DNA of 64,000 bases, from assembly GCF_003967175.1 (NCBI RefSeq), contig NZ_AP018553.1, positions 868,001 through 932,000 on the forward strand. Direction: 5' to 3'. The notes under the pieces were generated by a model. The model was not told the DNA's origin and made no database searches. It saw nothing but the letters and a program-made list of their open reading frames with translations. The position numbers and the translations under genes were made by a program. The stretch is from Sulfodiicoccus acidiphilus. GTDB lineage: Archaea; Thermoproteota; Thermoprotei_A; Sulfolobales; Sulfolobaceae. Below, piece by piece: positions 231 to 63,586 of the stretch. Positions within the stretch are counted from its first letter, which is position 1, and every line of letters starts with the position of its first letter.

Positions 231-2461
231 TCACGCGAAGGTGCTCGGCTTCACTACCTGCTTGGGGAGTTGCTGCCTAGCCCTTTCGAACCACGAGGCG
301 TAGAACTGCGTCATCTCCTGAGTTATTGAGGGCTTCACCTTCCTCATGGCCTCCATGAAGTGAGTCCAGTTTACCTTTAAGTCCTCAGCCCTTATCCCCT
401 TTCTGAGGCCTTCCCTTAGAGCCACTAGCCCAGCCTCTCTAACTAGGGCAGCTATGTCAGCTCCAGTGTAGCCCTCGGTCTTCGCTCCCAAGTCGCTTAA
501 ATCTACGTCGTTGGCCAGGGGCACTTTGCTGGTGTGGACCTTCAATATCTCCGTCCTAGCATCCCTATCGGGAGGTGGCACAAGTATCATCTTCTCGAAC
601 CTCCCTGGCCTGAGGAGCGCTGGGTCAACTATGTCAGGCCTGTTAGTTGCAGCTATGACAGCAACGTGCTGCATCTCTTCTATTCCGTCCATCTCAGCCA
701 GCAACTGGTTCACCACCCTCTCAGTCACTCCCGAGTCGTAGCCCGCTCCCCTCATTGGAGTTATGGCATCTATCTCATCGAAGAATATCACAGCTGGAGC
801 GTACTGCCTTGCCTTCCTGAATATTTCCCTTATGGCCTTCTCGCTCTCCCCAACCCACTTCGACAGTATCTCGGGGCCCCTGACGGCTATGAAGTTGGCC
901 CCACTCTCCGTGGCCACCGCCTTGGCCAACATGGTCTTACCCGTCCCAGGTGGACCGAAGAGGAGGATGCCCCGGGGCGGCTCTATGCCCACCTTCTCGT
1001 AGTAGTCTGGGAACTTCAGGGGATACTCCACTATCTCCCTCAGCTCCTGCTTGGCCTCCTCCAGTCCACCTATGTCGGACCACTTGACCTCGGGGACCTC
1101 TATATATATCTCCCTGAGTCCACTCGGCACTATCTCCTTCATGGCCTTCATGAAGTCGTCCATCCTCACCTCCATCTTCTCGAGGATCTCGGGCGGGATC
1201 TTGTCTTGGGAGAGATCTATTTCTGGGAGGTACCTCCTCAACGTATTCATGGCTGCCTCCCTCACTAAGGCCGACAGATCGGCACCAGTGTAACCGTGAG
1301 TTATGTCGGCCATCTTCTCTAGGTCGACGTCCTTGGAAAGCGGCATGTTCCTAGTGTGGATCTGTAGTATCTCTAACCTCCCCTGCTTGTCGGGGAGGGG
1401 TATCTCTATCTCTCTATCGAACCTCCCAGGCCTCCTCAGGGCTGGGTCCACCGCCCCCGCCCTGTTGGTGGCTGCTATAACTATGACGTTACCCCTACTC
1501 TCAAGGCCGTCCATGAGAGTAAGGAGCTGAGCCACAACTCTCCTCTCGACCTCCCCTATCACTTCGTCCCTCTTGGGAGCTATCGCGTCTATCTCGTCTA
1601 TGAATATGATGGCGGGAGCGTGTTTCTTGGCGTCCTCAAATATCTCCCTGAGCCTCTGTTCGCTCTCACCGTAGAACTTGCTCATTATCTCGGGGCCGTT
1701 TATGGAGGTGAAGTAAGCCTCAGTCTCGTTGGCCACCGCTTTCGCCAATAAGGTCTTCCCTACTCCTGGAGGACCTATGAGCAGGATCCCCTTGGGTGGC
1801 TCTATGCCCAACCTCTTGAAGAGTTCGGGGTGCCTCAGGGGGAGCTCCACCATCTCCCTGACTTTGTCTATTATGTTCTTCATGCCCCTATGTCCTCATA
1901 GGTTATCCTAGGGAGCCTAGTCTGCTCTATCGGCTTCTCGGATATGGTTATACTAGTCTCGTCGTTAGCTATCACCACTCCGACCGGCTTAACCTGTATT
2001 ACAGTGAACGGTATGGCCTGCCCCAGAACTGGAATCAAGACGGTGTCTCCCTCAACCATGGGGTAGTCCCTCAACTTCTTCTTGACGTAGCTGACGAAGC
2101 CTGGATCGACCGTGATGGAGAAGTTGGAGGGAGCTAGCTTTACGAAGCTGGCTGGCCTGACCTGGGCCTTCCTCACTACCACTCTGTCCCCTATGCTAAC
2201 TCCAGCGTTCTTCCTTGTTATCCCGTCCATTCTTATGACGTCCATCCCTGCGTCCTCGCTGGCGTTTGGCCAGGCTATGGCCGCGGTTTTCCTAGTTCCC
2301 TCTATCTCCACCACGTCCCCTGCGGTGACCCCTATTGACGCCAGGAGATCGGTGTCTATCCTAACCTTACCCCTACCTACGTCCTTCTGTTTCGCCTCGA
2401 GGACCCTGAGCTCGAGCTGCCTCCTCTGTGGCTGTCTCTGCTCCTCAGAACCGCTCGCCAT
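231..2461 (-). CDS. cdc48: Cdc48/p97/VAT-type AAA+ ATPase, interrupted by an apparent frameshift
   Basis: Archaeal Cdc48 is a hexameric unfoldase that extracts and unfolds proteins, often for the proteasome. The first 193 residues (1880-2461) form the N domain (double-psi barrel plus four-stranded barrel) and end in RITYEDIG. The second part (231-1883) holds two AAA+ domains, with Walker A GPPGVGKT and GPPGTGKT and Walker B IIFIDEID and VIFFDEID. The two parts overlap as ATGA. One extra G in the GGGG run at 1885-1888 would join them into about 743 residues, the normal family length. The break falls at the N/D1 boundary. Without that base, the D1-D2 part would need its own start at the overlapping ATG. 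Upstream lies an ESCRT-III gene. Confidence 0.93.
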
Positions 2462-2530
2462 GGTAATCTACTACTATCTCTCGGAGAGGAGGTTATTAGA
2501 ACTTGCTATGAGGGGTTTAACCCCAAAAAT

Positions 2531-3169
2531 TCACTGTTTTGAAGTGAGGGTGGAGGAGTGGGGGAGTTCTGGGAACTTCTCCTTCATGCGTTGTTCCGCT
2601 ATCACGGTTGCCTCGCTCAATATCTGCCTAGCCTCGGGGCTCGAGACAGCGTAACCGTACCCTGAGCCGGTGAACTCACCCGCGCTCAACACGACGTCGT
2701 TTAGTCCCTCCCCCAACTCCGAGAGCTCCAGGGAGAGTTCGGGCATCATGCCCCTTATGGAGTTCTTGAGTTCATTTATCACACTCACTACCGGCCCTAG
2801 GCCCACGAAGACGTCCGCGAACTCACCTATCGTCTCTAGCCTCAACTGCACCTGTTCTAGGGCGATCTGTGTGACTAAGAGCTGTTTAGACATCTTCCGC
2901 AGTTCGGCGACCTCGTTAGCGTATATGGATGCCCTCTGACTGTCCTTGCTCATCTGCGCCTCCACTACCCTCTCGAAGAGCACCCTGTCCCTCTCTTGCA
3001 TCCTAGATATCTGAGTCTCCAATCTGCCTATCATGGTCTTCAGCTTGTACTGAGCGTGCACCAGCCTATACTTCAGGGGCTCCTTGTTCTTGAAAGCCCC
3101 TCTGACCCTCTCACCGAGGGAAGGTTCGTCACTTCCTGCCCAATACCTCTGGAAATCCTTGCCCAACAT
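2531..3169 (-). CDS. ESCRT-III-like cell division protein (CdvB paralog, CdvB1/B2 type)
   Basis: About 212 residues with the helical, alternately basic and acidic layout of archaeal ESCRT-III. There is a basic N-terminal part ([19 protein letters not shown]), a long helix with [17 protein letters not shown], and an acidic C-terminal half. No winged-helix tail is visible, so it matches the shorter CdvB1/CdvB2 paralogs that constrict the division neck rather than CdvB itself. Which paralog it is cannot be settled by eye. The ATG at 3169 is preferred over the TTG at 3175: a TATA-like TTTTAAG on the minus strand near 3200 places the transcript start at about 3174. It lies just upstream of cdc48 in the same direction. 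Confidence 0.85.
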
Positions 3170-3275
3170 ACGCAATGTCTATCTTATATCACGGAACTTA
3201 AAAGGGGGTTCCCACGGTAATATCCGATAGGCCGCCCAGGAAACCTGGAGGACCCCTTCGTTCTTGGAAAGAGGC

Positions 3276-3803
3276 TCATCTGTTAGTCACCTCTAGGAGT
3301 TCCACCACGCTAGGGTCTTGTAGCCAGTCGACGCTCCTGCACTCTCCTTCCTCAAAACGCCTTATTACTTCCTGTACTGTGACATTACTACCATCGACCA
3401 CACAAACCTTCCTAAAACTCTCCCAAGCTTCGGCCTCAACCACTCCTAAGGCCTCGGCTTCTACGTTCTCCATCACTTTACTCTCCGGCCACCCCCTGTT
3501 CGACAAGTCCCTGTAAACTAGGAGCGGGTGCCTCCTCAGGACGAGGACTTCGTCCCCTTCCACCATGGATGGATATATGGACTCCACCACTGCGTCCCTT
3601 CCACGCAAGTACATAGAGAGCTCGGCTCTAGTCCTCTCCTCGTCCACCAAATAGCTTAAGCTTCCCTGGTCGAAGGAGGTGTAAAGTCCTCGAGAGACGA
3701 CGAAGGAGGAGAGGGAGACGTACTCGGCCCTTCTCCTTTTGGCCAACTCCGTGGCCACGGCGGTCTTCCCAGTCCCCGGAGTGCCGCTCACCACTAATAT
3801 CAT
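3276..3803 (-). CDS. AK6/Fap7-like adenylate kinase (probable ribosome assembly factor)
   Basis: A small P-loop kinase of 175 residues starting MILVVSGTPGTGKTAVA, the Walker A of the AK6/Fap7 family. In archaea and eukaryotes these proteins bind ribosomal protein S11 and help mature the small subunit besides having adenylate kinase activity. The frame stays open upstream, but the ATG at 3803 is chosen because it begins at the usual family position and overlaps the stop of the preceding small gene as ATGA. The C-terminal half carries VRRHPLLVYRDL-like helices typical of the lid and core; no interruption is seen. Confidence 0.8.
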   Translation of the reverse strand: MILVVSGTPGTGKTAVATELAKRRRAEYVSLSSFVVSRGLYTSFDQGSLSYLVDEERTRAELSMYLRGRDAVVESIYPSMVEGDEVLVLRRHPLLVYRDLSNRGWPESKVMENVEAEALGVVEAEAWESFRKVCVVDGSNVTVQEVIRRFEEGECRSVDWLQDPSVVELLEVTNR

Positions 3804-11191: not shown

Positions 11192-11209
11192 AGTAACATT
11201 GAGCAGACG

Positions 11210-11221: not shown

Positions 11222-11242
11222 GTAGTGTAAAAAGAAGGGTAT

Positions 11243-13570: not shown

Positions 13571-13581
13571 AGGTAACGTTA

Positions 13582-16974: not shown

Positions 16975-17098
16975 TTTACGTGTAGCGCTCATTTCCACTT
17001 CTCCAAAAACAAATGATAGATTTTAAGCATTGGATTAAACATTGTTTAGAACATACGTGGATCACGCTTTTATGATATGTATTAACTGGGCTTAACCT

Positions 17099-18513
17099 AT
17101 GAATAGTACGATAGAAAAATCCCTGAAGCTGGTCCGTGAAAATCAGATCGAGTGGTTAGACTTACAGTTCACGGACCTTCCAGGCAGGCTTCATCACATA
17201 ACTATACCCGCCAAAGAGTTGACAGAAGAGAGCTTCAAGACAGGATTCGGCAAGTTGGACGGGAGTAGTATAAGGGGGTTCACCACGATCTACGAGAGCG
17301 ACATGGTCCTCAGACCTGTTCCAGAGACCACTGCCCTACTTCCTTGGAACAAGGGAGTGGCGAGGGTTTTGAACCAGGTGTTTTGGGGGGCAGGCAGGGT
17401 AGATTCGAAAGAGACCCGCGGGGTGTGGCCGAGGCTGCGGAGACGTTCCAGGAACAGAGAGGGTTAAAGAGTTATTTCGGACCGGAGTTGGAGTTCTTTC
17501 TTTTCGATAAAGTTGAAATAGACGTCTCTACCCCAAGCAGTGGAACGGGATACAAAATAAAGGCTAGGGAAGCGCCTTGGGAGAAAACAGGGAACTTCCT
17601 CATAAGGTTCAAAGAGGGATACTATCCCGCTCCCCCGGTGGATCAATTGATGGATGTGAGGTTGGAGATCGTGGAGACCCTAACGAAGTTCTTCGGCTTC
17701 GAGATAGAGGCGACTCATCATGAGGTGGCAACCGCAGGACAGGGTGAAATAGACTTCAGGTTCTCAACGCTCGTAGATACAGCGGACAAAGTTCAAACCC
17801 TGAAGTATGTTGGGAAGAACGTGGCAGCGAACAAGGGGCTAGTAATGACTTTCATGCCTAAGCCTATGTTTGGAGACAACGGAACAGGAATGCACACCCA
17901 CTTCAGCCTCTGGACGGCTGACGGAAGTAAGAACCTTATGTATGACCCGTCCGATGAATATGCGGAGCTGAGTCAGACTGGTAGGTACGTGGTTGGAGGA
18001 CTCTTGCATCATGCTAGGGCCCTTTCTGCAATTGTGTCACCAACTACTAACAGCTACAGGAGGCTAATACCAGGTTTCGAAGCCCCAGTTTACTTAGCTT
18101 GGAGTAAGGGAAACAGGAGTGCAGTGATCAGAGTGCCCTCTTACTATAGAGGTATGGAGGTAGCGAAGAGGATCGAATATAGGGCGCCAGATCCTTCCAC
18201 TAATCCATATTTGGCCTTCTCTGCAATCCTTATGGCCGCCCTAGACGGAGTGAACAAGAAAATGGACCCAGGGGATCCGGTAGACGAGAACATATACCAC
18301 CTCACGCCCGAGAGGCGGAAACAGTTGGACATAAGAGAGTTGCCAAGGTCACTGGATGAAGCTCTAGACGAGCTGGAGAGCGACTTAGAGTTCTTAAAGC
18401 CGGTTTTCAACTCATCGATCTTAGACACATACATATCCATGAAGAGGGACGAGGCCAGGGCTGTGGCACAGTATCCCCACCCAGTGGAAATGTACTACTA
18501 CCTAGACTCCTAG
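17099..18513 (+). CDS. glnA: Glutamine synthetase, type I, interrupted by an apparent frameshift
   Basis: Makes glutamine from glutamate, ammonia and ATP. The N-terminal beta-grasp part includes LDGSSIRGF. The catalytic part has [10 protein letters not shown], the glutamate-binding region [12 protein letters not shown] and NRSAVIRVP. As written the frame runs out after [10 protein letters not shown]. One extra G in the run at 17385-17390 yields [16 protein letters not shown] and a 471-residue protein of normal length. A TATA near 17070 supports a leaderless ATG at 17099. The 3' end overlaps the convergent HTH-regulator gene by 12 nt, so antisense effects are possible. Essential for nitrogen assimilation, so true loss would be surprising. 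Confidence 0.93.
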
Positions 18514-35951: not shown

Positions 35952-35989
35952 GGTAACTATTTTATTGAACCGTCTCCACTTCTCCTAGA

Positions 35990-38679
35990 ATGTCCAACGC
36001 TCAAGAGAACGAGTACAGGCTTGATTTTTTCAAGGATCGAGGTTACGCGCGCAAGTTGTGCACTTCCTGCGGCACTCCGTTCTGGACAAAAGGCGAGAAT
36101 CAAACTTGTGCTGACGTCCCTTGCACAGAGTATTACTTCTTCGATCTACCAATATCTTCCCATAAACTGAGCGTAAGAGAGGCGCGCAGGAAGTTCATAT
36201 CGTTCTTCGCCTCCAGAGGGCACACGCCTATACCCCCAAAGCCTGTCTTGGCTAGGTGGAGGGAAGACCTCTATCTGACAATAGCCAGCATAGTGGACTT
36301 TCAACCCCATGTAACAAGTGGTATAGCACCTCCACCTGCCAACCCCCTGGTGGTCTCACAACCATGCATCAGGTTAGACGATATAGATAACGTGGGAGTG
36401 ACGTTCGGGCGCCATCTAACCACCTTCGAAATGGCCGCCCACCACGCCTTCAACTACCCCGACAAGTTCATCTACTGGAAAGAGGATACAGTGAGACTAG
36501 CTAAGGAATTCTTCGTCGAGGAGATCGGCGTACCTGAAGAGTTCCTGAACTTCAAGGAGTCCTGGTGGGAAGGAGGAGGGAACGCCGGTCCTTGCTTTGA
36601 GGTCACTGTGGGAGGACTGGAGGTGGCAACGCTGGTGTTCATGCAGTACTCTGCTAGAGACGGAAAGTATGAGCCGCTACAGTTGAAGATCGTTGATACC
36701 GGCTACGGTGTAGAGAGGATCGCTTGGCTAACACAGAAAAGTCCTACTGCATTCCACGCAATATACGGGGACTTAGTTCCGACTTTCTTCAGGAAGCTGG
36801 GCGTCCAAGAACCCGAGGAGGAGGTTTTGAGGACAGCATCTGTTCTGGCAGGCAGAATAGACCCAGATCACTGGGAGACCGTGAAACGCCACAGAGAAGA
36901 GGTGGCCCGCAGAACTGGGAGGAGTTTGAAGCTCGTGGAAGATCAACTAAACGATGCAGCCAAGGTGTTCCAAGTCCTGGATCACACAAAGACGTTGACA
37001 TTGATGTTAGGAGACGGAATGGTACCCTCAAATTCGGGCGAAGGGTATCTAGGGAGGTTAGTTCTGCGCAGGGCTCTCAAGGTTATGAAATTGTTGGGAG
37101 CGGAACCCAACTTAACAGATCTGATAAGGACTCAGATAGGGTTCTGGGGAGATGATTTCCCGCAAATGAAGCGGAATATTAGATATATCCTTGAAGTCGT
37201 AGAGGATGAACAAAGGAAGTTCCAGGAAATCCTGAACAAAGTTCCCTCATTAGCCCTTTCCCTATCCAAGAGGGGTAAGGTGACTTCGGATGACCTAGCG
37301 GCAACTTACGACAGTCATGGGGTACCCCCAGATCTCCTCTCCAGCGAGCTGAGGAAGTACGGAGTAGTGGTAAACGTTCCAGAGAATTTCTACGCGGTCG
37401 TGGCTAGGAGACATCAGGCGGCGCCGCTTAAGGGGGAAAGGAAGAGAGATTGCCAAAGGAACTGCAGCAGTTGGTGGAAGGATTGCCAAAGACAGAGAAG
37501 GTGTTCTATCAAGACCAGTATAGGAGAGAAGTGGAGGCCGTGGTGCTGGCGGCAAACGGGAGGTATGTGGTGCTAGACAGGACGGTCTTCTACCCACAGG
37601 GAGGAGGACAACTTGGAGATAGGGGCAAACTGGTAGGAGATCAGGAGGAGGAGGTCGTCGACACCCAAGAGGTTAAGGGAGTGGTAGTGCACGTTCTAGA
37701 GAGGGACACTGTGTTGAGAGTGGGGCAGAAGGTCAGGGCATCAATAGACTGGGAGAGGAGGTACAGGCTGATGAGACATCACACGGGAACTCACGTGGTC
37801 CTAGCTGCGGCCAAGCGGGTATTGGGCGAACATGTGTGGCAAGCGGGGGCCGAGAAGACACCAGAAAAGGGAAGGCTAGACATAACTCACTACAAGACCC
37901 CGACAGAGGAGGAGGTGAGAGAAATAGAGGAATTGGCCAACTTCGCCGTTATAGATAGAAGACCCGTGAGGTCTATCACGATGACGAGAACCGAAGCGGA
38001 GTCCAAGTTCGGCGTCAATATATACGAGGGAGGTGTCCCCATGACTAGGGACATTAGGCTCCTAGAGATCCAGGACTGGGACGTGGAGGCCTGCGGAGGC
38101 ACTCATGTTCTCAATACTGGGGAAATAGGCTCAATAAAGGTGGTGAACGTTGAAAGAATACAGGATGGAGTGGTAAGACTGGAGTTCGTAGCTGGAGATC
38201 AAGTATCTCGTTACGCTTCCTCCCTAGAGGGGACGATGAAACATATAGCGGAGTTAATTGGGGCCAGCGAGGCACAGTTAGTTGGTAGGTTGCGGAGGAG
38301 GCTCGAGGAAGAACGCCGCACTGAAGACCTCCTCAGGAAGTACAGGGAAGCGTACGAGGAGGCGTTGGTCAGAGGCGTCTCGTGGACTACCGTCGATGGA
38401 TTCAGGATCTCAATTTTGGACGAACTTTTCGACGACGAACTGAGTAAGAGAGTTATGAGGAGACTCACTGAGAGGGAGAGAACAGTAGCGGTTCAAGTGG
38501 GGAAGGAGAGGGTGCAGATAGCGACGTCAAGAGACGTTAAGGTGGAGCCCCTGATCAAGAAGCTAGTGGAAGTGGGAGGGAAAGGCGGAGGGAAGGGCAC
38601 AATGGGGATCGTCTCCATAAGGATGGAGAAGGAGGCAGTGCTGAAACTTCTGAGTGAGGCCTTGAGAGGATCCAGCTAA
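35990..38679 (+). CDS. alaS: Alanyl-tRNA synthetase, interrupted by an apparent frameshift
   Basis: Class II synthetase charging tRNA-Ala. An archaeal zinc-containing N-terminal segment ([10 protein letters not shown]) precedes the aminoacylation core ([33 protein letters not shown]) and the tRNA-binding domain. In the second part (37450-38679) come the editing domain with [17 protein letters not shown] and CGGTHV, and the C-terminal domain ([11 protein letters not shown]). The first frame drifts after [10 protein letters not shown]. One extra G in the run at 37432-37436 gives [14 protein letters not shown] and an 896-residue protein of normal length. A TATA at 35954-35962 supports a leaderless ATG at 35990. 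The gene is essential, so an actual split needs explanation. Confidence 0.94.
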
Positions 38680-39436: not shown

Positions 39437-40063
39437 TCAAATCGCTTGCATCACAGCGGCCTTGATGTCCTTGTCCATCCTAACCTCGCTGAGGTAGGAG
39501 AACTTACTCGCCTCCACCGGCCATAGAAGAGCGTTGAACTCTCTGTCAACCGAGGTCATGAACTCCCTTTCCTTGACTTTTACAAAACCGGTGTAGGTGG
39601 GGTTGTAGAGTTGCCTAAAGGTATTGAAGGCCTCGAAGACGATGAACTTGTAGGGATAGTCCATGTCGATCTCTAGACACTGGTACTTACGTGCGAAACC
39701 GAGTATCTTGGAGACCACGGCACCCACCGACGAAATCCTGCTTACACTCACCTGCCCCACGTCTCCGAAACTGGCCAAGGAAATGAACACGTCAAACTGA
39801 TCGACGGGGGTCACCACCCTTGCCCCAACTACCCTGCAGTAGTTGGAGCAGGTGGAGGGAACCTTGAATTTGCCGGTGAAGACGTCCTCCTGGTCCTTAC
39901 CCTCCACCAACATGGTCATGACTACGTTCGCAAGGTGTTCCACTTTGCACGAGAGCCTCTCCAACTCTGCCCATAATCCTGGGGAGATCTCGATTACGTC
40001 TCCCGAGTCTGTGAGTACCCTCTTCCCGCCTCTAAGTATGTTCACCCTGAGCTCATGTAACAT
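39437..40063 (-). CDS. Hypothetical protein
   Basis: 208 residues with no family I recognise. It is soluble, with no signal peptide or membrane span. It contains six cysteines, including a cluster STCSNYCRVVGARV near residue 70. The ATG at 40063 lies about 26 bases from a minus-strand TATA (CGATATAAGCC near 40094), which supports leaderless expression. It diverges from the MMPL transporter gene; nothing in the context points to a role. Confidence 0.7.
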   Translation of the reverse strand: MLHELRVNILRGGKRVLTDSGDVIEISPGLWAELERLSCKVEHLANVVMTMLVEGKDQEDVFTGKFKVPSTCSNYCRVVGARVVTPVDQFDVFISLASFGDVGQVSVSRISSVGAVVSKILGFARKYQCLEIDMDYPYKFIVFEAFNTFRQLYNPTYTGFVKVKEREFMTSVDREFNALLWPVEASKFSYLSEVRMDKDIKAAVMQAI

Positions 40064-40178
40064 TCTGAGGAGAATAATTAGGCTTCAGGGCTTATATCGT
40101 TTTTTCCCGACTGAACTCCAGCCCGTTAAGCCGAGCCTTACAAACACTGAAATTCCACTGGGTCTCCCTTCTCTTGGA

Positions 40179-42706
40179 ATGAGGAGGCAGTTGATAGCCT
40201 GGGTGGTGATCCTAGTGCTTGCTACCTTACCGGCGCTCAACACCCCAAGCAGGTTAGTCTACACCGATTCTCCTTTCCTTTCCAGGAGCTTTCCTAGTCA
40301 AGAGGCCCAAGAGCTCCTCAAAGAGGACTTCCCGTCCTTCTATCCGAACTACTCTACTCTTTACGTGATCTTCGTAGGAGGGAACTTGACTGAGGATGGT
40401 GCTAGACTAGCCCAAGCAGCGAGGTACCTCTACAGGCCCATCCTCCTTTCACCTCCTCAAATCCAATACGAAGAGAACGAGACGGCATACAGGTTAGCCG
40501 AGACCATCGTTGAACCCCAGGTGAAGAACTTGACTACGTTTTACCTCGCGGTTCACGAACTCTACCTCAAACTCAACCAGAGTAGGACGGAGTTCATGCG
40601 GAATCTGAGTGTTATACTCGATCATGCGAACCAAACTTTCACCTTAGCGAGGGAGTTGGACGGTGGACCCAACTACACCGCTGCTTATAATTCTCTATCT
40701 AGGGAATTGAACGGTACTCAACTCATCCTCCTGAAAATGATGTACGGCAACCTGACTAAGTACGGCAACGTGGAGTCGGCGGCCGCCCACATTGGAGCCT
40801 CATACTTCAAGGAGCCTGTAATAGCGAAGCTTGGATTCTCAAACTTCTCTAACGCCTCCAAGGTGGCCTCGCTCTTACCCAACTCCTACTTATACCAGCT
40901 CAACTCCACCGAAACCTACGCCTCGGCAATAGGTGACGCCCTAGGAATTCCGGTAAACTCGACGTTCATGGTGAACCCTTCCCTGGTCCAGGTTTACGTC
41001 ATAAGAGACGTCCTAGGTAACTTCCTCCCTCCTACGCCAAAACCTAAATATATGGATTACCTGTTATTCGCGGTCGAGGTTCCCCCAACGAGAGCCTGGC
41101 AGATGTGGAGCTCTTCTCCTCTCACCTCAACAATGCATACGTCACGGGTCACCTCCCCATATACGCGGAGTCGGCCTTCGCGACCAGCTCGGAGCTTGAG
41201 ATAGTGGACCTTATAACTATTCTAGCAGTTGTCCTCCTCCTTACTCTGCTGTTGAGGGCAGTAGTCCCGATTCTCACCCTGGTGATTACTGCCGGTTCCG
41301 CCCTAGACTTGGCCTACGGACTGACCTACGTCTCTTCCCTACTGGGGTACAGGATGTACTACATATCAGGTTTCGTGGTGGCCCCTATAGTGTTCGGACT
41401 CACAGTGGACTACTCCATGCTCCTACTCTACAGGTACTTCGAGGGACTGAGGACGGCTGAGGGCTCGCTCGATAGGGCACTCAGGAGCTCTAGGAGGACG
41501 GTTTACATGAGCGGGATATCAGTTACCTTGGGGTTCTCTTCGTTCCTCCTCACCCCCTCTCCGCTCCTGAGGAACATAGGCCTCTCGCTCATCATCGCGG
41601 CGGCCAGCTCAGTTGCAGCCTCCACCACGTTCTACCCCTCTCTGCTCTCCATCGTAAATCCAAGGACCATGGCATTCCCTCGACGCGAGTTGCCCGATCC
41701 CGACGACGTAAGACAGAGCTACCTAGAGGCCGCGTCCACCTTCGCGGTCAGAAAGAAGTGGCTAGTCGTAGGACTCATGATTGCCTTAACCGCAGGCTCC
41801 CTCCTCGTCTTGGTTACCCACCCAACTAACCTCAGCGTGGGGGAGATCCTCCCGTCAGGCTCAGGCGCAGTCAAGGGTGAGGCGATACTCTCTTCCATGT
41901 ACAACTACAGCCAGCTATACGCTATAACATCCTCGCAGGAACAGACGAAGGCCCTAACGAAGGCCCTCCTGGAGGAGGGGGCGTGGGTCTACGGCCCTTA
42001 CTCTCTGGGGAGGGGTCTCCTCAGCCGGCCACTGACTGGACCGTTCTACAGGGATGGGCACTACCTTGTGGAAGCCATAGTACCTGGGGCCGTGTTCTCT
42101 AATGAGGCCATACAGGCCACAGCTAGGGTGACTGGACTCGGGTTGGTGGGTGGCTCCAACGCTCAGAGGCTGGACATAGTGAACAACACGGTCTTCAGTT
42201 ACTTTCACTACACTCTACCCATCACCGTGGTCCTCATATTGGCGTACCTGTTCGTCGCGATGGGCTCGGCGATTACACCTCCCAGACTGGCTGCCACGGT
42301 GTTGGTGAGTAGCTTAGCTGGAGTAGCAACAGTGGAGCTGATCTTCGGCTCGGTCTACTGGCTCTCCCCACTAATAGTGTTTGCCCTAATGTTTTCGCTC
42401 GGAATAGACTACGACGTCTTCCTGGTGAGCAGAATTATGGAAGAGGAAGGAGGAGACGAGGAAGTGCGAGTGATCAGGGCCGTGAAGTCCACTGGGTTAG
42501 TCATAACTGCGGCTGGACTTGTCCTAGGAGTCGCCTTTTTCTCCTTAACTACAGCCAACATGCGGTTCCTCGAAGAGATAGGGGTGGGGGTAGGTGTGTC
42601 GGTCTTGGTCGACACCTTCGTAGTTAGAACAGTTTTCGTCCCAGCGGTGATGGCCATCCTCAAGGAACTGAACTGGTGGCCCAAAAAGAGGGTTAAGCCT
42701 TCTTGA
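40179..42706 (+). CDS. MMPL/RND-type membrane transporter, interrupted by an apparent frameshift
   Basis: Starts [20 protein letters not shown] (first transmembrane helix), then a large external loop rich in N-glycosylation-type NxS/T sites. A second frame from 41105 has five further helices, a second external loop, and a repeat of the membrane domain ([17 protein letters not shown] versus [17 protein letters not shown], the paired Asp motifs of MMPL). The 5' frame drifts after FAVEVPP. One extra C in 41082-41086 gives [17 protein letters not shown] and a protein of about 842 residues. Export of a lipid or hydrophobic compound driven by protons is the usual role. Confidence 0.85.
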
Positions 42707-43961: not shown

Positions 43962-46015
43962 TTAGACCTTCCTGTAACACTCGGTCCTCACTTCTATCAC
44001 TAGACCAGACTTCCTCATTTCACTTAATATCTTCTCCACTGCGGCTTTGTCTATACCGTATCCTCTAGCTTCCTCTATCACCTCGCTTAGCTTAGCGCAC
44101 TCAGTCTCTTCGGCTAGAGCATCCACGATCTCACTAACTTTAGCCATCCTGTCGCGAGCGGTCTTGGGTCTTCCGGTCATTATAGTGTCTATATCTAACC
44201 TCCCCGACTCGACGTCTATCCCTACGGCCTCCAGAAATATCCTCATTATGTTGATTGCCCTCTCCGCATCCTCCCTCTCCGCGGTCTGTTTCAGGGCCAT
44301 CCTGGCGTAGGCCTCTGTCATCCTTATCAGGGCCTCGAGTTGCCTAGGAGTGATCAATATTGGACTGTCTGAGCTCTCAGCACTCTTCTTCCTCATCTCC
44401 ACGAAGAAGTCAAGCAATAGTTGTCTAGCTTCCGCAGACAGCACAGGCCTTACGTTCTTCCTTGCGAACGCGATGTATTTCTTGAGGACGTCTATCTGAA
44501 TCGGTTGACCGTAGCTGCTCTCCGAATGCATGTCCAAGATGTGAGAGGCGAGCAGTTGGTCCCCCTCCCCAGGCTTGTCCCTTAAGATGAATATTAGATC
44601 GAACCTGGAAAGGATGGTAGACGGCAAGTTTATGTTGTCGGCCACTCCCCTCTCTGGGATGTAGCGACCGAACTTGGGGTTTCCAGCGGATATGACGGTG
44701 GTTCTTGCGTTTAACTTGGCCACTATTCCAGCCTTGGCTATAGAGACGGTCTGCTGTTCCATGGCCTCGTGTATAGAGACCCTGTCCTCCTCCCTCATCT
44801 TGTCTATTTCGTCTATTACCGCGACCCCCCCGTCCGCTAACACCAGCGCTCCAGCCTCGAGGTAGTAGTCCCCGCTATTCTTGTCTCTCACTACCGCGGC
44901 GGTGAGTCCAGCCGCCGTTGCTCCCTTACCTGTAGTGTATACAGACCGAGGGGCCGTTCTATATGCGAACTGAAGCATCTGGGACTTGGCCGTACCTGGA
45001 TCTCCAACTATGAGTAAGTGTATATCCCCCTTTACCCTAGTTCCGTCGGGCAGGACCTTAGGGACTCCTCCGAAAAGCGAGAGGGCTATCCCTCCTTTAT
45101 CTCCCAGTGACCATAGATGGAGGGAGCTATGGAGGAAATGATCCTTTCCCTTATCCAGGGGTCCTGGGCCAATTCCCTCAACTTGAGCTCGTCCTCCTCC
45201 GAGATCCTGACCTCGTCTAACGCCTTCTCTGACAACTCTATACTATTGGCCCTCATGTACAAATCGAAGACTGCCCTAGCACCCCTCTTCATGGATCCCT
45301 CCTGTTGAAGCTCAAGTATTCCCACCAGCTTCACTCTGTCTCCTGGCCTCACGGAGTCCACCAGATCGTCCTCTACTACCACCGCCAGTTGCCTTGGGAG
45401 CTGCCCAGCCGGGATCTCCTCTGGTCTCTCCTGAAGGATCACCCTCTGCCAGTCCGTCAGCTCCGACTTCTCAGGTATGAGTTTCATCTGACCTGGTTTC
45501 TCACAAACTGGGCAAACTGTAGGGAGTTCCACGTAGTCTCCCATTTCCTCGTCCACCGGCCACACGAATTCGGCCATGCAGGAGGGATCGTTGTGCCTGA
45601 ACGTACCTCTAATCATCCTCTCCTTGACTGGTGTAGACCTCACTAGTATGCCCTCCACGGCTATGAGCTTGTTCAGATCGTCGCTCCTAAGTTTCCTGAG
45701 CTCCACCGAGTTAGGGACGTTAGTTACCCTAACGTGAACTCGAGGAACCTCTTGGGAGAACTGCGGTTCGAGCTGGGATATCGTAGCCATGAGCGCCTTC
45801 TCCATCAGTGGCAACACCTCCTTAGGTCTGTTCACTAGGAGGGTCGCCAGCTCCCTATCGAAGAGTAATAGATCGACGAAGTCGACAGAGAGGCTCCTAC
45901 CCCTCTTAGCGACGATCTCACTCACTCTTGGGAGGTATTTGGACTTCCCCCTCTCATCTTTCCAATCACCCAAAAACTCCCTGAACAGTTCCTCAACGTT
46001 AAGCTCTCTCTCCAA
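43962..46015 (-). CDS. mcm: Replicative helicase MCM, interrupted by an apparent frameshift
   Basis: The first 309 residues (45086-46015) form the N-terminal domain with a zinc site (DPSCMAEFVW ... CPVCEKPGQ) and OB fold, ending IYGHWEIKEG. The AAA+ part follows in another frame: ALSLFGGVPKVLPDG, Walker A VGDPGTAKSQ, Walker B GGVAVIDEIDK, the arginine finger in STILSRFDLIFILRD, and a C-terminal winged helix. One extra G at 45090-45092 gives EGGIALSLFGG and about 684 residues, the normal Sulfolobales length. The 5' end overlaps gins23 by 17 nt. It unwinds DNA 3'-5' as part of the CMG-like complex. Confidence 0.93.
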
Positions 46016-46552: not shown

Positions 46553-47044
46553 GTGCCCGAGCCCAAGCTACTCGCAACAACGTTGGCCGGTAAGTCGTCC
46601 AGGTGTGTGAGGGAGGTGCTGAATTCCATTATGCCTAGGGACCCAGAGGTCGAGGTGACCGAGGTCTGTCAAAACGTGTTGGTGGTGCGTTCCAACCTCC
46701 TACCCAACGAGGTCTACGGGACGCTTAGGGCGGCTCCACCTTCATGTCTAGCTAGGGCATATCCAGTTCACACTTTGGCTCCGCTGAACGAAGTCGAGGC
46801 GATTAGGGCAAGTCTAGAGTTGGTTGGGAAGTATCAAGGTACGTTTTTAGTAGATTGTGTGAACAGAGGAGCGAAGGTTGACTGCAGGCAAGTGGAAATG
46901 GGGATAGGTATGATGTTGGGCGGAAGAGTGAGCTACGGGAACCCAGACTGGGTATTGACTGTGAACTGTGCCGACATGTGTTATATCTCGGTACTTAGGA
47001 GGGGACAGGAAAAGTTTCGGTCTAGCCTCCCGATGTCCATATAA
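46553..47044 (+). CDS. THUMP-domain protein
   Basis: 163 residues from GTG. It begins KLLATTLAGKSSRCVREVLN and continues with CQNVLVVRSNLLPNEVYGTL, then VGKYQGTFLVDCVNRG and a typical THUMP end NPDWVLTVNCADMCYISVL. THUMP domains bind the tRNA acceptor arm and usually guide a modification enzyme. A stand-alone archaeal THUMP protein (Tan1-like) helps N4-acetylcytidine formation in tRNA. TATA CCATATATTG at 46521-46530 gives a leaderless start. cdc6-2 follows 25 bases later. Confidence 0.85.
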   Translation: MPEPKLLATTLAGKSSRCVREVLNSIMPRDPEVEVTEVCQNVLVVRSNLLPNEVYGTLRAAPPSCLARAYPVHTLAPLNEVEAIRASLELVGKYQGTFLVDCVNRGAKVDCRQVEMGIGMMLGGRVSYGNPDWVLTVNCADMCYISVLRRGQEKFRSSLPMSI

Positions 47045-47069
47045 GGGAAAAGACAGGAATTATAAAGCA

Positions 47070-48310
47070 ATGGAGGAGTCTTCACAATCACCGAGGGACA
47101 TACTCAGCGAGTCAGCCAGCGGGCTGTCGGTCTTCAAGGATAGGAGCAAGCTCTCCCCAGATCATGTGCCAAGTAGGCTTCCATTCAGGGAACAGAAGCT
47201 GAGGGAACTGGGGGTGAGTTTCAAGGGACTAATAGAATCCCCAGGGTCCTCTTCAATGAGGGCCCTCATAGTGGGTAAGACTGGCACGGGGAAGACTGTG
47301 ACGGCCAGGGTGTTCGGAAGGGAGTTCAGGGAATTAGCTAGAAGCCGCGACGTGAAGCTGGAGTACGTTCACGTGAACTGTTACAGACAGAGGACCCTCT
47401 ACATGATCACCTCCGAGATCGCGGGTACCCTAAGACTCCCAATACCGATGAGAGGTTTCTCGTCCCAGGAGGTATTCAGGGCAATAAACGATTATCTTGA
47501 GAAAAGGAACATGCATCTGATAATAACGTTAGACGAGTTCGACTATCTGATAAACAGCGCTCCTCTGGGGAAGTTTACTTCCTTGTCAGACTTTACGATG
47601 AGATAGCGGCTTCGGTGAAGAGAATAAACTACATCTTCATCGTGAGGGACTGGAGCACGGTCAACGTGTTGGATAAGTCCTTAAGAGACCACGTGGTGAG
47701 GAACGTGGTAGAGTTCAAGCCCTACACAGCGTCCGAACTCTACGCTATATTGGAGGACAGGACCAAGGAGGCCTTCCACGAAGGCACTGTTCCTCCTGAA
47801 GCCCTGGAGTTGATCTCCGAGATGCATGGTTATGATAAGGGGGGAATGGGGAACGCGAGGCTGGCGATAGAGGTACTCGAGCTGGCGGGCGACATAGCAG
47901 ATAAGGGAGGACACCAAATGATAACGCGAGAGATAGTTAGGGAAGCCAATGCTAGGGCCAACCCAGAGTCCACGGTGGTGAGCGAGAGCATCTCCTCCCT
48001 CGAACTGCACGAACTGATAACCCTCTACGCGGTGGTCAAACTCTCGGAGTCGAGAAGGGGGGAGTACTTCACAATGGGGGAGGTAGAGGAGGAGTACGCT
48101 TCGGTATGTAGAAGCGTAGGAGAGGAGCCAAGGAAACACACTCAGTTCTACGAGTACGTTAGAAAGATGAGACTGATGGGAATACTCGACACTAAGCAGA
48201 GTGGGAGAGGCATGAGAGGCAGAACTACACTAGTCGCGCTCAACGTCCCCCACTCCAAGGAACTGAAAATGGCGATAGAGTCGAGAATGGGATTGGCGTC
48301 TAGGCCTTGA
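47070..48310 (+). CDS. cdc6-2: Orc1/Cdc6 family protein (Cdc6-2 type), interrupted by an apparent frameshift
   Basis: AAA+ initiator/regulator. ATG 47070 (MEESSQSPRDILSES) is preferred to longer frames reaching into the THUMP gene. Walker A LIVGKTGTGKTVTARVF; Walker B LIITLDEFDYLI; then the frame is lost after SAPLGKFTS. One extra G at 47567-47570 gives APLGEVYFLVRLYDEIAAS and joins the lid and C-terminal winged helix (47615-48310), for about 413 residues. Location beside gins23-mcm matches the cdc6-2 locus of Sulfolobus, where this paralog is thought to act as a negative or stress-related factor. No origin boxes were recognised nearby. Confidence 0.9.
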
Positions 48311-52983: not shown

Positions 52984-53529
52984 CTAACTTCCTCTGGCTG
53001 CTCTCAACGCTATAGCACAGGCTGCCCTAACGTCCCTGTCCTTCACTCTTATGTAGGGGTTATTCTTACTTGTCATCTTTTCGTCGACTCTCTCCGCGTC
53101 GAATGAAGTAGTGAGCATTCGATAGGTAAATTCCCCTAGCTTATTTCCAACTCCAACTCCAATACGATGAACTCTGTGAGGGTAAACATTTATTACGTGC
53201 TGGATGAACTCTTCTATTCTATTAAAGTTAACTTTAGCGGACGTGAGCAACTCGCCGTCCCCGAGAACAGCAACTGTGAGTTCGTCGCTATTTGTATCAA
53301 TTCCTATAAGTAGCTCGTCGTAGAGGCTCTTTCCCTTTAATAAACAGATAGCTCTCTCCACCCCAGGTTCAATGTCTTCTATCCTCCTAACTACGATATC
53401 TCCTTTAGTGTCAGATATGGTAACCTCTGCTACCCCTTCAGTAAGCGATACACCTCTGTCCCTCAGAGCTAAGACGACGAGGTGAAACAGTTTTGGGTCA
53501 TTTATTTTCACGGCTAACCTGTTACCCAA
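52984..53529 (-). CDS. RNase H/RuvC-fold-like archaeal protein of unknown function
   Basis: 181 residues. The middle segment LLIGIDTNSDELTVAVLGDG has the Asp-bearing first strand of the RNase H-like fold. HRIGVGVGNKLGEFTYRML follows, and the end RVKDRDVRAACAIALRAA recalls the Asp-rich C-terminal helix of RuvC-type resolvases. The first 75 residues are an unknown domain. The catalytic set is not proven; this is a fold suggestion only. It diverges from the LysE-type exporter gene. Confidence 0.45.
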   Translation of the reverse strand: MGNRLAVKINDPKLFHLVVLALRDRGVSLTEGVAEVTISDTKGDIVVRRIEDIEPGVERAICLLKGKSLYDELLIGIDTNSDELTVAVLGDGELLTSAKVNFNRIEEFIQHVINVYPHRVHRIGVGVGNKLGEFTYRMLTTSFDAERVDEKMTSKNNPYIRVKDRDVRAACAIALRAARGS

Positions 53530-53589
53530 GCCTCGCGTAGCGTTAACTATTACGGGCTTTAAGTTTTTAGTTGGTTTGATGTAGGTGGA

Positions 53590-54207
53590 TTGAAGCTCGA
53601 GGAATTCAGAAAAGAACTTGAGGGGATGGGATTGGAAGATTTGCTGTTAGGTATAGGTCTAGGAGTAGCTATGGGGCTCTCCTTGGCTGCCCCTCCAGGT
53701 CCAGTCAATGCCTTGATAGCTACAGAGGCGGCCAAGTCTCCGTTACATGGAACTAGCGTCGGAGTTGGCGCTATGACTGCTGACGCGGTTTTCATGACAA
53801 TCACGTTAATAATAGGGAGATTTCTGCCCAGTTTTGTAATACACTCTCTCTTCTTAGCTGGCGGCGGTGTGATGCTTTACTTAGCATACGATGTGTGGAG
53901 AAGCAAGGGACCGAGCGGGAGGGGGAAGAAGGGAAACTTCGTAGTGGGTCTAGGGATGGGTCTCAGTAATCCTTTTCAAATAACTTGGTGGTTAACCGCC
54001 GGCTTGTTCATGATTCGAGAAATTTCGCTCACGACAATACCGGGATTCTTTGCAGGTATTCTCCTTTGGATTTTCTCATTTCCTCTCACTATACACAAAA
54101 TACGAGCAAGATATAAGTACATAAAGTATGCGTCGGCAACGATCTTGTTGTTATTCGGTGCCTACATGCTATACATCGGTGTCGCCTACGCACTCAAAAC
54201 TACTTAA
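53590..54207 (+). CDS. LysE-family exporter
   Basis: 205 residues with six predicted helices: GIGLGVAMGLSLAAPPGPVN contains the family PGP signature, then GVGAMTADAVFMTITLIIG, and a C-terminal LLLFGAYMLYIGVAYAL. Exports amino acids or related small molecules, with the substrate not predictable. The TTG start precedes a charged N-terminal helix of 20 residues that is longer than usual, so the true start might be a little later. Confidence 0.85.
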   Translation: MKLEEFRKELEGMGLEDLLLGIGLGVAMGLSLAAPPGPVNALIATEAAKSPLHGTSVGVGAMTADAVFMTITLIIGRFLPSFVIHSLFLAGGGVMLYLAYDVWRSKGPSGRGKKGNFVVGLGMGLSNPFQITWWLTAGLFMIREISLTTIPGFFAGILLWIFSFPLTIHKIRARYKYIKYASATILLLFGAYMLYIGVAYALKTT

Positions 54208-54991: not shown

Positions 54992-55751
54992 TAGGTTCTC
55001 TTATATATCCTCGTTATTATTAGTATCACTAGTGAAATAATTAGAAGGAAAGCCGCCTCTGGTATTGAGGACCTGAAATAATACTCGTATTGAGAATAGA
55101 TGTATACTGAGGCTGGACTTACGAGGTTAAACGGACCCCCTTGAACGTAAAATGCTACTATAGCAATCGAGCCGAACTCGCTCATTGCTCGGGCCATTGC
55201 GGTTAAGGCCGCAGATACGAGGCTAGCCCTTGAGCTAGGGAAGACCACTCGAATAAACGTTGTAAGCTCGTCCGCCCCTAAGGTCCTTGAGAACATCTCT
55301 GGGCCTCGGTTCATTCCCTCAAATAGGTTCTGGGCTGCTCTCACGTAAATTGGAGTGGAAACGATTATGAGGGCGGTGACCAAACCTAAATAGGAGTCGA
55401 AAAGGTTGAGTCCAATAGAGTTCAGGAATTGGCCAGTTGGTGTATATGGGCTATCCAGTATGACTAAAGCTATTCCCACTATGGGGTGGGGGATTGATGC
55501 GGGTACGTCGACTAACCCTTCGAGGAATGGATTTCTTCGTCTAGATAAAAAGTAAGCCACGTGAGTGAAGAACAAGATTTCTATAGCTGCTGTCAAACCT
55601 GATGCCACTATTGTGAGCTCAACCGCTTTCAAGAAGGAAAGACCTAACGCCGAGAGGGAGAAGAAAGGCCCTAGGCCGTAAAAAAGTAGAACAACGAGCG
55701 GTGCTGCTAGTAATAGGAGAGGGATAACAGAAAGGGAGAATAGTCTATCAA
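54973..55751 (-). CDS. Molybdate/tungstate-type ABC transporter permease, interrupted by an apparent frameshift
   Basis: Six-helix binding-protein-dependent permease. The cytoplasmic EAA-type loop is FSRTLGADELTTFIRVVFPS. Clear coding from 54973 to 55632 continues 5' without a usable start. Adding one C (plus-strand GGG at 55734-55736) lets it begin with TTG 55751: MIDYSPLSVIPLLLLAAP, a first helix, giving about 259 residues. That TTG overlaps the binding-protein stop (TTGA). The C-terminal codons and stop lie in the reverse complement of the tRNA-Pro T arm. No ATPase gene adjoins. Confidence 0.82.
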
Positions 55752-56788
55752 AGCTCCGCGAGCGGCCCAGCGTAGGTCACTTCTCCAGAGCTCTCAAGCT
55801 CAGAGATTTGAGGCGGGAGAGTGTTATTAGAAGCGAAAAGTGGGGCAGGAATTGCAGGCGTCAGGCCATATCGCTCCAATTCGTCCACGTGACTGAGAAC
55901 GAAACGCAAGAACGCGTATGAGGCCTGCGGGTTCTGCGGCTTAGTGGGAACGGTTATGTAGAGGTAGACAGGGCTGCCACTTACGTTGACGTCCTTTCCT
56001 TCTAGGTTAACTGGCCAAGAGAACTTTGAGTAGAACGATGAATACTGAGAACTCCCGAAATTCAACCAAGGTGGGAGCTGTAAGTAGGAGAATCCCTGCG
56101 CCATGGCGTAAGACCTATAGGAGAAAACTAACTGCACTTCCCCCTCCTCCAATGGCCCGACGTATTCTCCTGTGCTCGACCTCGTCACGTTCGCTCCAGT
56201 TTCTATCACCCTGTCGAGGAAGTAACTGGAGTTGTGAGCGTAAATCTTTCCCGCTATCTCTAACATAAGGAACGCATATAGTCCCTCTGGGTCCGTACTA
56301 GGATTGGATATACCAAGCTTCACACTGCCAGAGGTGATCGTTTCGAAAAAATCAAACCAGTAAGTAGAATCATTGGTGGACATGGCCTCGTGATAATAGG
56401 ATAGAGCCTCCCTCACGGAAGGATTCTGGAGGGAAGCGTTAGAATAGACTATGGCCATTTGATCCGTGAAGATTCCTATTGCCCACCCTGGATTCCTCTG
56501 TCCCAACACGTCTACGGCCTGAGTAAACGCAACTGGCATAAATACGCTAGCTGGTTCTCCTGCGGCTATATCCGAAGCTAGCTTGAAGCTACCTCCCGGA
56601 ATTACTGTAACCTGGACTCCAGTTGAATTATGAAAGGCTTGCGCCAAGAACTGCGCCTCAGCAGTATATGCCCCAGCCACATACACGGCGAGTGGTCTAG
56701 AGTGAGGAGCAAAAAGGCCATAGGCGGCTGCGGCGACCACAACAGCTACAACTAATCCGACAGCCAGATACTTTAAGGAGCTCATCAC
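55748..56788 (-). CDS. Molybdate/tungstate-type solute-binding protein
   Basis: 346 residues: an N-terminal membrane anchor (LAVGLVVAVVVAAAAYGLFA), then a type-2 binding fold beginning LAVYVAGAYTAEAQFLAQAF, with PGGSFKLASDIAAGEPASVF and DQMAIVYSNASL resembling WtpA/ModA. Many NxS/T sequons suit an extracellular, glycosylated protein. It captures oxyanions such as tungstate or molybdate for the permease; the specificity is inferred. Given moaA, moaC and a molybdopterin enzyme in the window, metal uptake for that cofactor is a sensible role. Confidence 0.8.
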   Translation of the reverse strand: MMSSLKYLAVGLVVAVVVAAAAYGLFAPHSRPLAVYVAGAYTAEAQFLAQAFHNSTGVQVTVIPGGSFKLASDIAAGEPASVFMPVAFTQAVDVLGQRNPGWAIGIFTDQMAIVYSNASLQNPSVREALSYYHEAMSTNDSTYWFDFFETITSGSVKLGISNPSTDPEGLYAFLMLEIAGKIYAHNSSYFLDRVIETGANVTRSSTGEYVGPLEEGEVQLVFSYRSYAMAQGFSYLQLPPWLNFGSSQYSSFYSKFSWPVNLEGKDVNVSGSPVYLYITVPTKPQNPQASYAFLRFVLSHVDELERYGLTPAIPAPLFASNNTLPPQISELESSGEVTYAGPLAEL

Positions 56789-62764: not shown

Positions 62765-62785
62765 GGAGCAACTCTGCGGGCTCAC

Positions 62786-62795
62786 AATTTAAAAC
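62786..62795. promoter_or_regulatory. Shared palindromic TATA between prs and the GPN GTPase gene
   Basis: CAATTTAAAAC centred at about 62790. Start codons at 62764 (minus) and 62817 (plus) lie 26 bp to either side, so both messages can be leaderless from one element. Confidence 0.55.
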
Positions 62796-62816
62796 TCTGG
62801 GGGTCCTGTCCTCCTA

Positions 62817-63586
62817 TTGGGGATGTATTTCATTTTCGTGACAGGCACGGCCGGATCTGGTAAGACAACACTCACCGCCTCCCTAATTGATTTCCTGACT
62901 CAGGCAGGGATGGATGTGGCTGCGGCTAACCTAGATCCCGCTGTGGAGAGGTTACCTTATGTCCCTGACTTCGATGTGAGACAGTATGTAGATGCTGGCG
63001 AGATAATGAGAAAGTACGGGCTTGGTCCAAACTCCTCTCTCGTCGCCGCGACGGATATGGCGCTAACAAAAGCGACTGAGATAAGGGAAGAGATGGATAA
63101 GTTGAGGGCCAACTACGTAATAGTGGATACCCCAGGACAAATAGAGTTGTTCGCCTACAGGAATTCAGGAAGGATGTTACTAACACTCCTGTCAGAGGAC
63201 TCTAAGAGCGTAAATCTGTTCCTTTTGGACTCCTTTTTGACAAAGGAACCTAGAAGTTATCTGTCCTTATTGTTGCTGTCCAGCTCAGTGAAATTCAGGC
63301 TTAACCTCCCACAAGTTAACTTACTGTCCAAAGTGGATCTCCTCACTCCCCAAGAGTTGGAGAAAATTACGGCGTGGAGCGAAGGAGAAGAACTAATAGA
63401 CGCACTAGGAATAGTAGATGACAACTCCTACGAACTGGCCTCTTCAGTGATCCAGTATGCTTCCTCCCCTCCCACGCCTGTCTCTGCCATAGAAGGAAAG
63501 GGACTAGGGAAGTTTACGCTCAAGTTCAGAGAATTCTCGCAGGCGGAGAGGACTACTACACCGAGGAACCTAACCCCAATCTATAA
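62817..63586 (+). CDS. GPN-loop GTPase, interrupted by an apparent frameshift
   Basis: Homodimeric archaeal GTPase related to eukaryotic Gpn1-3. G1 FVTGTAGSGKTTLTASL, GPN loop as YGLGPNSSLVAA, G3 VDTPGQIELFAYRNS, and G4 LLSKVD. TTG 62817 fits the shared TATA; ATG 62823 is an alternative. The first frame loses the family tail after GKGLGKFTL. One extra G at 63507-63509 gives GLGEVYAQVQRILAGGEDYY and a stop at 63584-63586, for about 256 residues. It is followed by a PCNA gene 26 bases later. Role in archaea is not settled. Confidence 0.87.

What the first reader, a model, noticed from the sequence alone, without database searches (positions are those of the whole stretch)
231..63586. Ten genes broken by the same kind of event: one missing base in a G/C homopolymer
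cdc48, the NSUN-like gene, glnA, alaS, the MMPL gene, mcm, cdc6-2, the permease, UPF0200 and the GPN GTPase are each split. In all ten, adding one G (or C) inside a run of 3-6 identical bases restores the family's length and conserved motifs. No case needs a different fix. Several genes are essential and single-copy. The simplest reading is homopolymer undercalling in the sequence. A biological alternative (transcriptional slippage at G runs restoring the frame in part of the mRNA) is less likely because runs as short as GGG are involved.
Basis: partly seen in the sequence, partly recalled or inferred. Interest (0 to 1): 0.75.

Follow-up and report, generated by a model that had tools for sequence, protein, structure and literature searches.

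The report
Sequencing errors split nine archaeal genes
Nine genes in this stretch of an acid-loving archaeon's published genome look broken most likely because the sequencing dropped one base in short runs of G or C, a known fault of the method used, which has probably also hidden a gene that the genome paper did not count.

Summary
The window is bases 868,001-932,000 of a single 2,353,189 bp contig. The exact length and the cdc6 position match Sulfodiicoccus acidiphilus HS-1T, sequenced with PacBio RS II alone and HGAP v3. Nine of the ten named genes are really split, each by one missing base (net -1), while relatives carry the gene whole. The tenth, 'the permease', is not shifted in either candidate I found. 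Breaks sit at G/C runs far more often than simulated random deletions do (10 of 10 at runs of at least 3, null 37%; 8 of 10 at runs of at least 4, null 11%). The pattern extends beyond the window: one more break against the sister genome and five Pfam-confirmed splits. Thermus thermophilus NAR1, also PacBio/HGAP3, shows the same error: 2,927 deletions and 1 insertion against Illumina, mostly in runs of 5-6 G or C, with >90% of PacBio reads at the sites concerned carrying it. The best reading is a systematic PacBio undercall, so HS-1's own PacBio reads cannot settle it; Illumina or Sanger can. One consequence is that the genome paper's 'only one copy of cdc6' overlooked a second, split cdc6 beside mcm.

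The parts
234..2467 (-). cdc48 AAA ATPase gene, split; break at GGGG (coding strand) 1885-1888
   Evidence: CDC48_N/CDC48_2 on one frame, two AAA domains on the other; one -1 at ~1887 against the 745-aa G001 orthologue, 97% identity
13582..14618 (-). NSUN/RsmB-F-like RNA methyltransferase gene, C-terminal end out of frame; break at GGGGG 13615-13619
   Evidence: PF01189 matched only to position 152 of 199; -1 in 12 and +2 in 2 of 14 references
17096..18513 (+). glnA glutamine synthetase gene, split; break at GGG 17397-17399 (a GGGGGG lies about 12 nt upstream)
   Evidence: PF03951 on one frame, PF00120 on the other; -1 in the 14 of 14 best of 34 matching proteins
35969..38679 (+). alaS alanyl-tRNA synthetase gene, split; break at GGGGG 37432-37436
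   Evidence: PF01411 positions 1-435 on one frame and 471-552 on the other; -1 against the 905-aa G001 orthologue, itself over the NCBIfam archaeal AlaRS cut-off
39843..42706 (+). MMPL-family transporter gene, split; break at CCCCC 41082-41086
   Evidence: PF03176 on the second piece; -1 against the 947-aa G001 orthologue
43962..46015 (-). mcm replicative helicase gene, split; break at GGG 45090-45092
   Evidence: MCM_N and MCM_OB on one frame, MCM, MCM_lid and MCM_C on the other; only MCM gene of the genome; -1 in the 14 of 14 best references, two genomes being counted twice
46965..48310 (+). second cdc6/orc1 gene (cdc6-2), split; break near GGGG 47567-47570
   Evidence: AAA part on one frame, Cdc6 lid and winged helix on the other; -1 in 6 of 6 cdc6 proteins next to mcm in relatives; the second of two Cdc6_C matches in the genome
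   Evidence: PF13238 on the first piece; -1 against G001 and L117
62793..63586 (+). GPN-type GTPase gene, C-terminal end out of frame; break at GGG 63507-63509
   Evidence: PF03029; -1 near the end against G001 and L117
54976..55776 (-).
   Evidence: aligned to G001 residues 5-267 without a shift; no ATG/GTG/TTG at the place of G001's ATG
52987..53646 (-). other candidate for the tenth gene; not frameshifted
   Evidence: five relatives' 192-218 aa orthologues align with no shift

Best explanation
The nine breaks are errors in the deposited sequence. Each true run of G or C is one base longer (4 to 7 bases) than written. The PacBio RS II reads lack that base systematically at a small share of G/C runs, so deep coverage and the HGAP consensus kept the error. 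The real genes are whole and make ordinary full-length proteins. Shown here: the breaks, their -1 direction, their G/C-run bias, unbroken relatives, retained selection, and the platform used. Inferred: that the reads themselves carry the deletion, as was shown for Thermus NAR1.
For: Identity and method: 2,353,189 bp single contig equals S. acidiphilus HS-1T, PacBio RS II + HGAP v3, 1.538 Gb of subreads, no short reads mentioned, 244 genes already called pseudogenes. Direction: all 10 breaks kept from protein alignment are -1 (8 against the same-genus genome; NSUN and cdc6-2). Five Pfam-confirmed splits in other stretches are also -1, but 18 of the 21 pairs scanned there were in that frame to begin with. 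Runs: enrichment over 1,500 simulated deletions; rate rises with run length (3/2132, 2/517, 2/144, 1/19 for lengths 3, 4, 5, 6), with 0 of 2,447 A/T runs of >=3 assigned a break. Function: mcm is single-copy and cannot plausibly be dead. Selection: codon positions 1+2 are conserved on both sides of the breaks as in 111 other genes, save the upstream part of MMPL. Controls: after inspection, no internal break of its own in G001 (104 genes, 79.6 kb) and one doubtful case in six relatives' loci (122 genes, 88.6 kb). Precedent: Thermus NAR1, same assembler, 2,927 deletions and 1 insertion, chiefly in 5-6-base G/C runs, >90% of PacBio reads at the sites concerned showing a G deletion, Illumina reads unbroken, gyrA and gyrB split.
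Against: No independent reads of HS-1 could be examined. Three of the ten measured breaks are at runs of only three G as assembled (four if corrected), shorter than the 5-6 reported for Thermus. DNA alignment to G001 puts the gap in or beside the run at 5 of 8 sites, 2 nt past it in cdc48, and elsewhere in MMPL and UPF0200, so the run assignment of those rests on the protein frame. The breaks are uneven: 7 of the 8 found against the same-genus genome fall in the window, which is 46.5 of 116.0 kb covered. The 23S rRNA gene shows no missing base against G001, though less than one was expected at this rate. About 650x coverage should remove random error, so the error must be systematic, which is assumed by analogy.
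Confidence: 0.95

Rival explanations
1. The genome is correct and the frame is restored in part of the mRNA or protein by transcriptional slippage or programmed frameshifting at the G/C runs.
For: Breaks do lie at homopolymers, and the downstream frames stay under selection.
Against: Relatives have the genes unbroken, so the sites are not conserved. In-frame X_XXY_YYZ heptamers are within 24 nt of only 1 of 9 sites. Runs of 3-4 are far shorter than known slippage runs (recalled). It would be needed at many sites, while thousands of equal runs in aligned genes keep frame.
Confidence: 0.02
2. The genes are real, recent pseudogenes or laboratory mutations of the sequenced culture.
For: The authors list 244 pseudogenes, and single-base deletions in runs are a common spontaneous mutation (recalled).
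Against: mcm is single-copy and the strain grows; the spectrum is one-sided; each of the nine genes has one lesion and no stop; selection is not relaxed in most parts. A growing culture cannot plausibly hold that many fresh lesions in core genes.
Confidence: 0.02
3. Some of the nine are true pseudogenes or natural gene splits mixed with errors.
For: MMPL is less conserved than the others (58% identity; positions 1+2 to 3 ratio 0.56 upstream, above the 95th percentile of 0.495 for other genes) and may be dispensable. glnA and NSUN have paralogues.
Against: Each has only one lesion, and its downstream part is conserved where tested; the direction and run type are those of the error class.
Confidence: 0.1

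Closest known systems
Systematic PacBio/HGAP3 deletions in G/C homopolymers of Thermus thermophilus NAR1 (PMC7694296; sections 6 and 10 read)
   Same: PacBio consensus with HGAP3 before correction; single-base deletions almost exclusively; G/C runs; essential genes apparently split; only a small share of runs hit (1.64% there; 8 of 2,814 runs of >=3 here); no clear context motif.
   Different: About one per 1,000 bases there against roughly one per 14.5 kb of covered coding sequence here (8 in 116 kb); Illumina reads were available there and not here; runs of 3-4 are also hit here.
Quiver frameshifts at nine-G runs in Xanthomonas oryzae tal genes (PMC4853030; passages only)
   Same: Long-read consensus fails at a G run and makes a false frameshift.
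   Different: Longer runs; mostly cured by re-running the consensus with newer-chemistry data.

Membership tests
Systematic PacBio G/C-homopolymer deletion artefact | Consensus built from PacBio reads only, without short-read polishing | tested here: met
   Methods of PMC6647314 name PacBio only; identity by exact genome length
Systematic PacBio G/C-homopolymer deletion artefact | Deletions with almost no insertions | tested here: met
   10 of 10 breaks kept from protein alignment are -1; 5 Pfam splits also -1 but from a set mostly in that frame
Systematic PacBio G/C-homopolymer deletion artefact | Located in G/C runs | tested here: met
   10 of 10 within 8 nt of a G/C run of >=3 (null 37%), 8 of 10 of >=4 (null 11%)
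Systematic PacBio G/C-homopolymer deletion artefact | Essential genes hit as well as others | tested here: met
   single-copy mcm; alaS and cdc48 by family, essentiality recalled
Systematic PacBio G/C-homopolymer deletion artefact | Short reads show the longer run; PacBio reads show the deletion | not testable with these tools
   no reads of HS-1 are held
Programmed -1 ribosomal frameshifting | In-frame slippery heptamer X_XXY_YYZ at the site | tested here: not met
   1 of 9 sites has one within 24 nt
Programmed -1 ribosomal frameshifting | Frame change conserved in relatives | tested here: not met
   relatives carry unbroken frames
Transcriptional slippage | Long homopolymer (about nine or more A/T, or long G; recalled) | tested here: not met
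   runs are 3-6 as assembled
Pseudogenes | Relaxed selection or several lesions per gene | tested here: not met
   one lesion each, no stops; position 1+2 to 3 ratios not above the 5-95% range of other genes, except the MMPL upstream part; NSUN and cdc6-2 not tested for selection

The most novel reading that the evidence does not exclude
The hit runs carry a chemical feature of the DNA itself, such as a modified or damaged G or C particular to some thermophiles, that makes the PacBio polymerase skip one base in nearly every read. Archaeal HS-1 and bacterial Thermus would then share a hidden DNA modification that shows up only as false deletions.
Probability: 0.08. Interest if true: 0.5.

Novelty: not a real feature. 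Interest (0 to 1): 0.2.

Why it matters
The genome is that of the type species of its genus, and later work cites it for a gene absence (polB3, passage). Its paper states that HS-1 has a single cdc6, unlike other Sulfolobales with three. A second cdc6 lies beside mcm, as it does in 6 of 6 relatives' loci compared, and was probably missed because of the artefactual break; a third was not found. Many of the '244 pseudogenes' may be of this kind (inferred). By contrast, the claim that polB3 is missing is not undone by my search: six frames show only two family-B polymerase matches. Users should polish or re-read the genome before drawing conclusions from missing or broken genes.

Tried and rejected
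The 'permease' was sought in two places and no convincing shift was found in either.

Context motif: of 26,866 k-mer features none survives correction for testing (smallest p 6e-4). The 11-mer GGGAAGTTTAC occurs at two broken sites (cdc6-2, GPN), but a third copy in 440 kb, with a run of six G, lies in an aligned gene without a break, so it is not a strict trigger. AA follows 5 of 10 hit runs against 13-19% of background runs, by run length; this is uncorrected and treated as a lead only.

rRNA: no missing base in HS-1 23S against G001; uninformative because less than one was expected. 16S was not compared.

An origin-recognition box in the window: none with up to 3 mismatches to the published HS-1 motif.

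Ab initio overlap search: 29 overlapping ORF pairs in 13 stretches, 24 in the frame a missing base would give and 5 in the other. Natural ATGA/TAATG overlaps share the first frame, so the skew alone proves little. I scanned 18 of the 24 and 3 of the 5; the 6 left out have a start codon exactly at the stop. 5 of 18 and 0 of 3 are one Pfam family cut in two; a sixth (HerA) is likely but not counted; the others show different families, too little, or nothing.

Rows dropped: one search tagged 16 shifts as internal in 146 aligned genes and 14 more as weak. I kept 8, all -1. glnA, at residue 13 of a contig-truncated reference, is kept because 14 of 14 longer relatives agree. I dropped a compensating -1/+1 pair five residues apart (854,109/854,125); a -1 at residue 31 with a stop and poor similarity beside it (940,501); three +1 at residues 13-32 and two +2 at residues 24-27, near the start of stop-to-stop reference ORFs; and the 14 weak rows, 12 of them at residues 6-33 and the others at residues 35 and 69. 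In the reverse control 11 shifts were flagged on G001: 4 mirror HS-1's own breaks; the other 7 are in rRNA (1), near ORF starts (4) or in a 45%-identity pair (2). In the six relatives' loci 6 were flagged, one beyond residue 32 (L115, residue 50, 42% identity).
Full report
Identity. The window is bases 868,001-932,000 of a single contig of 2,353,189 bp. Sulfodiicoccus acidiphilus HS-1T has a published genome of exactly that length and 51.15% G+C (the window has 51.4%), and its cdc6 beside oriC-1 at 87 kb agrees with the Cdc6_C match at 85,900-86,178. I read parts 1 and 2 of 3 of that paper; part 2 runs into the reference list. It states PacBio RS II, HGAP v3, 1.538 Gb of subreads (about 650x by my arithmetic), 244 pseudogenes and one cdc6, and mentions no short reads.

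The observation. A frameshift-aware protein-to-DNA aligner was written and run with ORFs of G001, the only same-genus genome among the 40 relatives, and with other Sulfolobaceae. Nine of the ten genes have one net -1 break (the frame-equivalent +2 in 2 of 14 NSUN references) and no internal stop. Pfam agrees for cdc48, alaS, mcm, glnA and cdc6-2, whose domains are divided between two frames. DNA alignment at the eight sites with a G001 counterpart (seven in the window, one in L099) puts the gap in or beside the G/C run at five, 2 nt past it in cdc48, and elsewhere in MMPL and UPF0200, where divergence makes it ambiguous. The tenth gene is not convincingly shifted in either of the two ORFs that could be meant.

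Chance. Deleting one random base 1,500 times from 92 intact genes and locating it the same way gives a median location error of 1 base. A G/C run of >=3, >=4, >=5 lies within 8 nt in 36.9%, 10.9% and 2.9% of cases. The ten breaks (nine here, one in L099) give 10, 8 and 5 of 10; the glnA value uses a six-G run about 12 nt from its nearest run, and without it the last two counts are 7 and 4. From those fractions the binomial probabilities of 10, 8 and 5 are about 5e-5, 7e-7 and 5e-6 (my arithmetic). No A/T run of >=4 lies within 8 nt of a break (0 of 10, null 9.5%).

Rate and spread. In 116.0 kb of HS-1 coding sequence aligned to G001, 8 breaks were kept. Assigned to their nearest G/C run they hit 3 of 2,132 runs of three, 2 of 517 of four, 2 of 144 of five and 1 of 19 of six, and none of 2,447 A/T runs of three or more. 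Seven of the eight lie in the window, which is 46.5 kb of that sequence, so density is uneven. In 13 further stretches (260 kb), 5 of 18 scanned ORF pairs in the -1 frame proved to be one Pfam family cut in two (FAD_binding_4, Semialdhyde_dhC, CitMHS, HpaB, Glycos_transf_2), against 0 of 3 in the other frame. Their overlap intervals hold G/C runs of four to six, weaker evidence because the intervals are long. With NSUN and cdc6-2 there are 15 breaks, all -1; the last five come from a set chosen mostly in that frame.

Controls. G001 compared with HS-1 (104 genes, 79.6 kb) had 11 shifts flagged, of which 4 mirror HS-1's breaks and none of the rest looks internal to a conserved gene; six relatives' loci (122 genes, 88.6 kb) had 6 flagged, one doubtful internal case. 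All 40 relatives have an MCM match. In 39 of the 40 the best match lies in an open frame of 683-746 aa; in the fortieth, G034, the matches are spread over a 2,098-aa frame. In HS-1 the frame is 426 aa.

Selection. For the eight broken genes with a G001 partner, substitutions at codon positions 1+2 relative to position 3 range from 0.03 to 0.35 on either side of the break, except 0.56 for the upstream part of MMPL. In 111 other genes of more than 50% identity the median is 0.31 and the 5-95% range 0.15-0.495. The downstream frames are therefore still selected as protein.

Mechanism. About 650x raw coverage makes random error unlikely, so the reads must lack the base systematically. That was shown directly in Thermus thermophilus NAR1: HGAP3 assembly, 2,927 deletions and one insertion against Illumina, essentially in 5-6-base G/C runs, 1.64% of G/C homopolymers hit, >90% of PacBio reads at the points concerned carrying the same deletion, split gyrA and gyrB, no context motif; about a tenth as many were cited for Mycolicibacterium hassiacum. 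HS-1 fits that class with a lower rate. What marks the hit runs is unknown in both cases.

Rivals. Recoding or slippage is disfavoured by unbroken relatives, by short runs, and by an in-frame slippery heptamer near only 1 of 9 sites. Real lesions are disfavoured by a single-copy mcm, by the one-sided spectrum and by retained selection.

Consequence. The genome holds two Cdc6_C matches, not one. The second is the split gene beside mcm, aligned to cdc6 proteins next to mcm in 6 of 6 relatives' loci. The paper's statement of a single cdc6 is thus probably a result of the artefact. Searches of the paper library for Sulfodiicoccus with frameshift, cdc6 or pseudogene returned 2, 2 and 1 papers. The pseudogene hit and one of the cdc6 hits are the genome paper itself; of the other three papers I saw only passages, none of which discusses this. 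The lack of polB3 is not overturned by a six-frame family search, which gives two family-B polymerase matches.

Noticed in passing
window 54976-55776 (-): ABC permease overlapping the end of its substrate-binding-protein gene; its frame is conserved with G001, but HS-1 has ACG/CTG where G001 has ATG, so the start codon is unclear.
   Followed up: partly
window 15489-15800 and 23169-23500: Repeat of about 300 bp; its end of about 55 bp recurs at many contig ends of the same-genus genome G001, like a small mobile element.
   Followed up: no
window 47568 and 63507; L099:4851: Two broken sites share the 11-mer GGGAAGTTTAC; the third copy in 440 kb, with a six-G run, is in a gene without a break.
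   Followed up: yes
window 43407-43495 and 54895-54991 (+): Two tRNA genes found by Rfam but not by ARAGORN, perhaps intron-bearing.
   Followed up: no
window 35640-35951 (+): Small ORF resembling the C-terminal part of the upstream gene 34610-35593, perhaps a partial duplication; G001 has a like pair.
   Followed up: no
window 9734-17000: Stretch with an integrase-family gene (11231-12058) and no DNA match listed in G001 apart from the repeat.
   Followed up: no
genome 103,135 and 1,621,550: Only two family-B DNA polymerase matches in six frames, in line with the published absence of polB3.
   Followed up: yes
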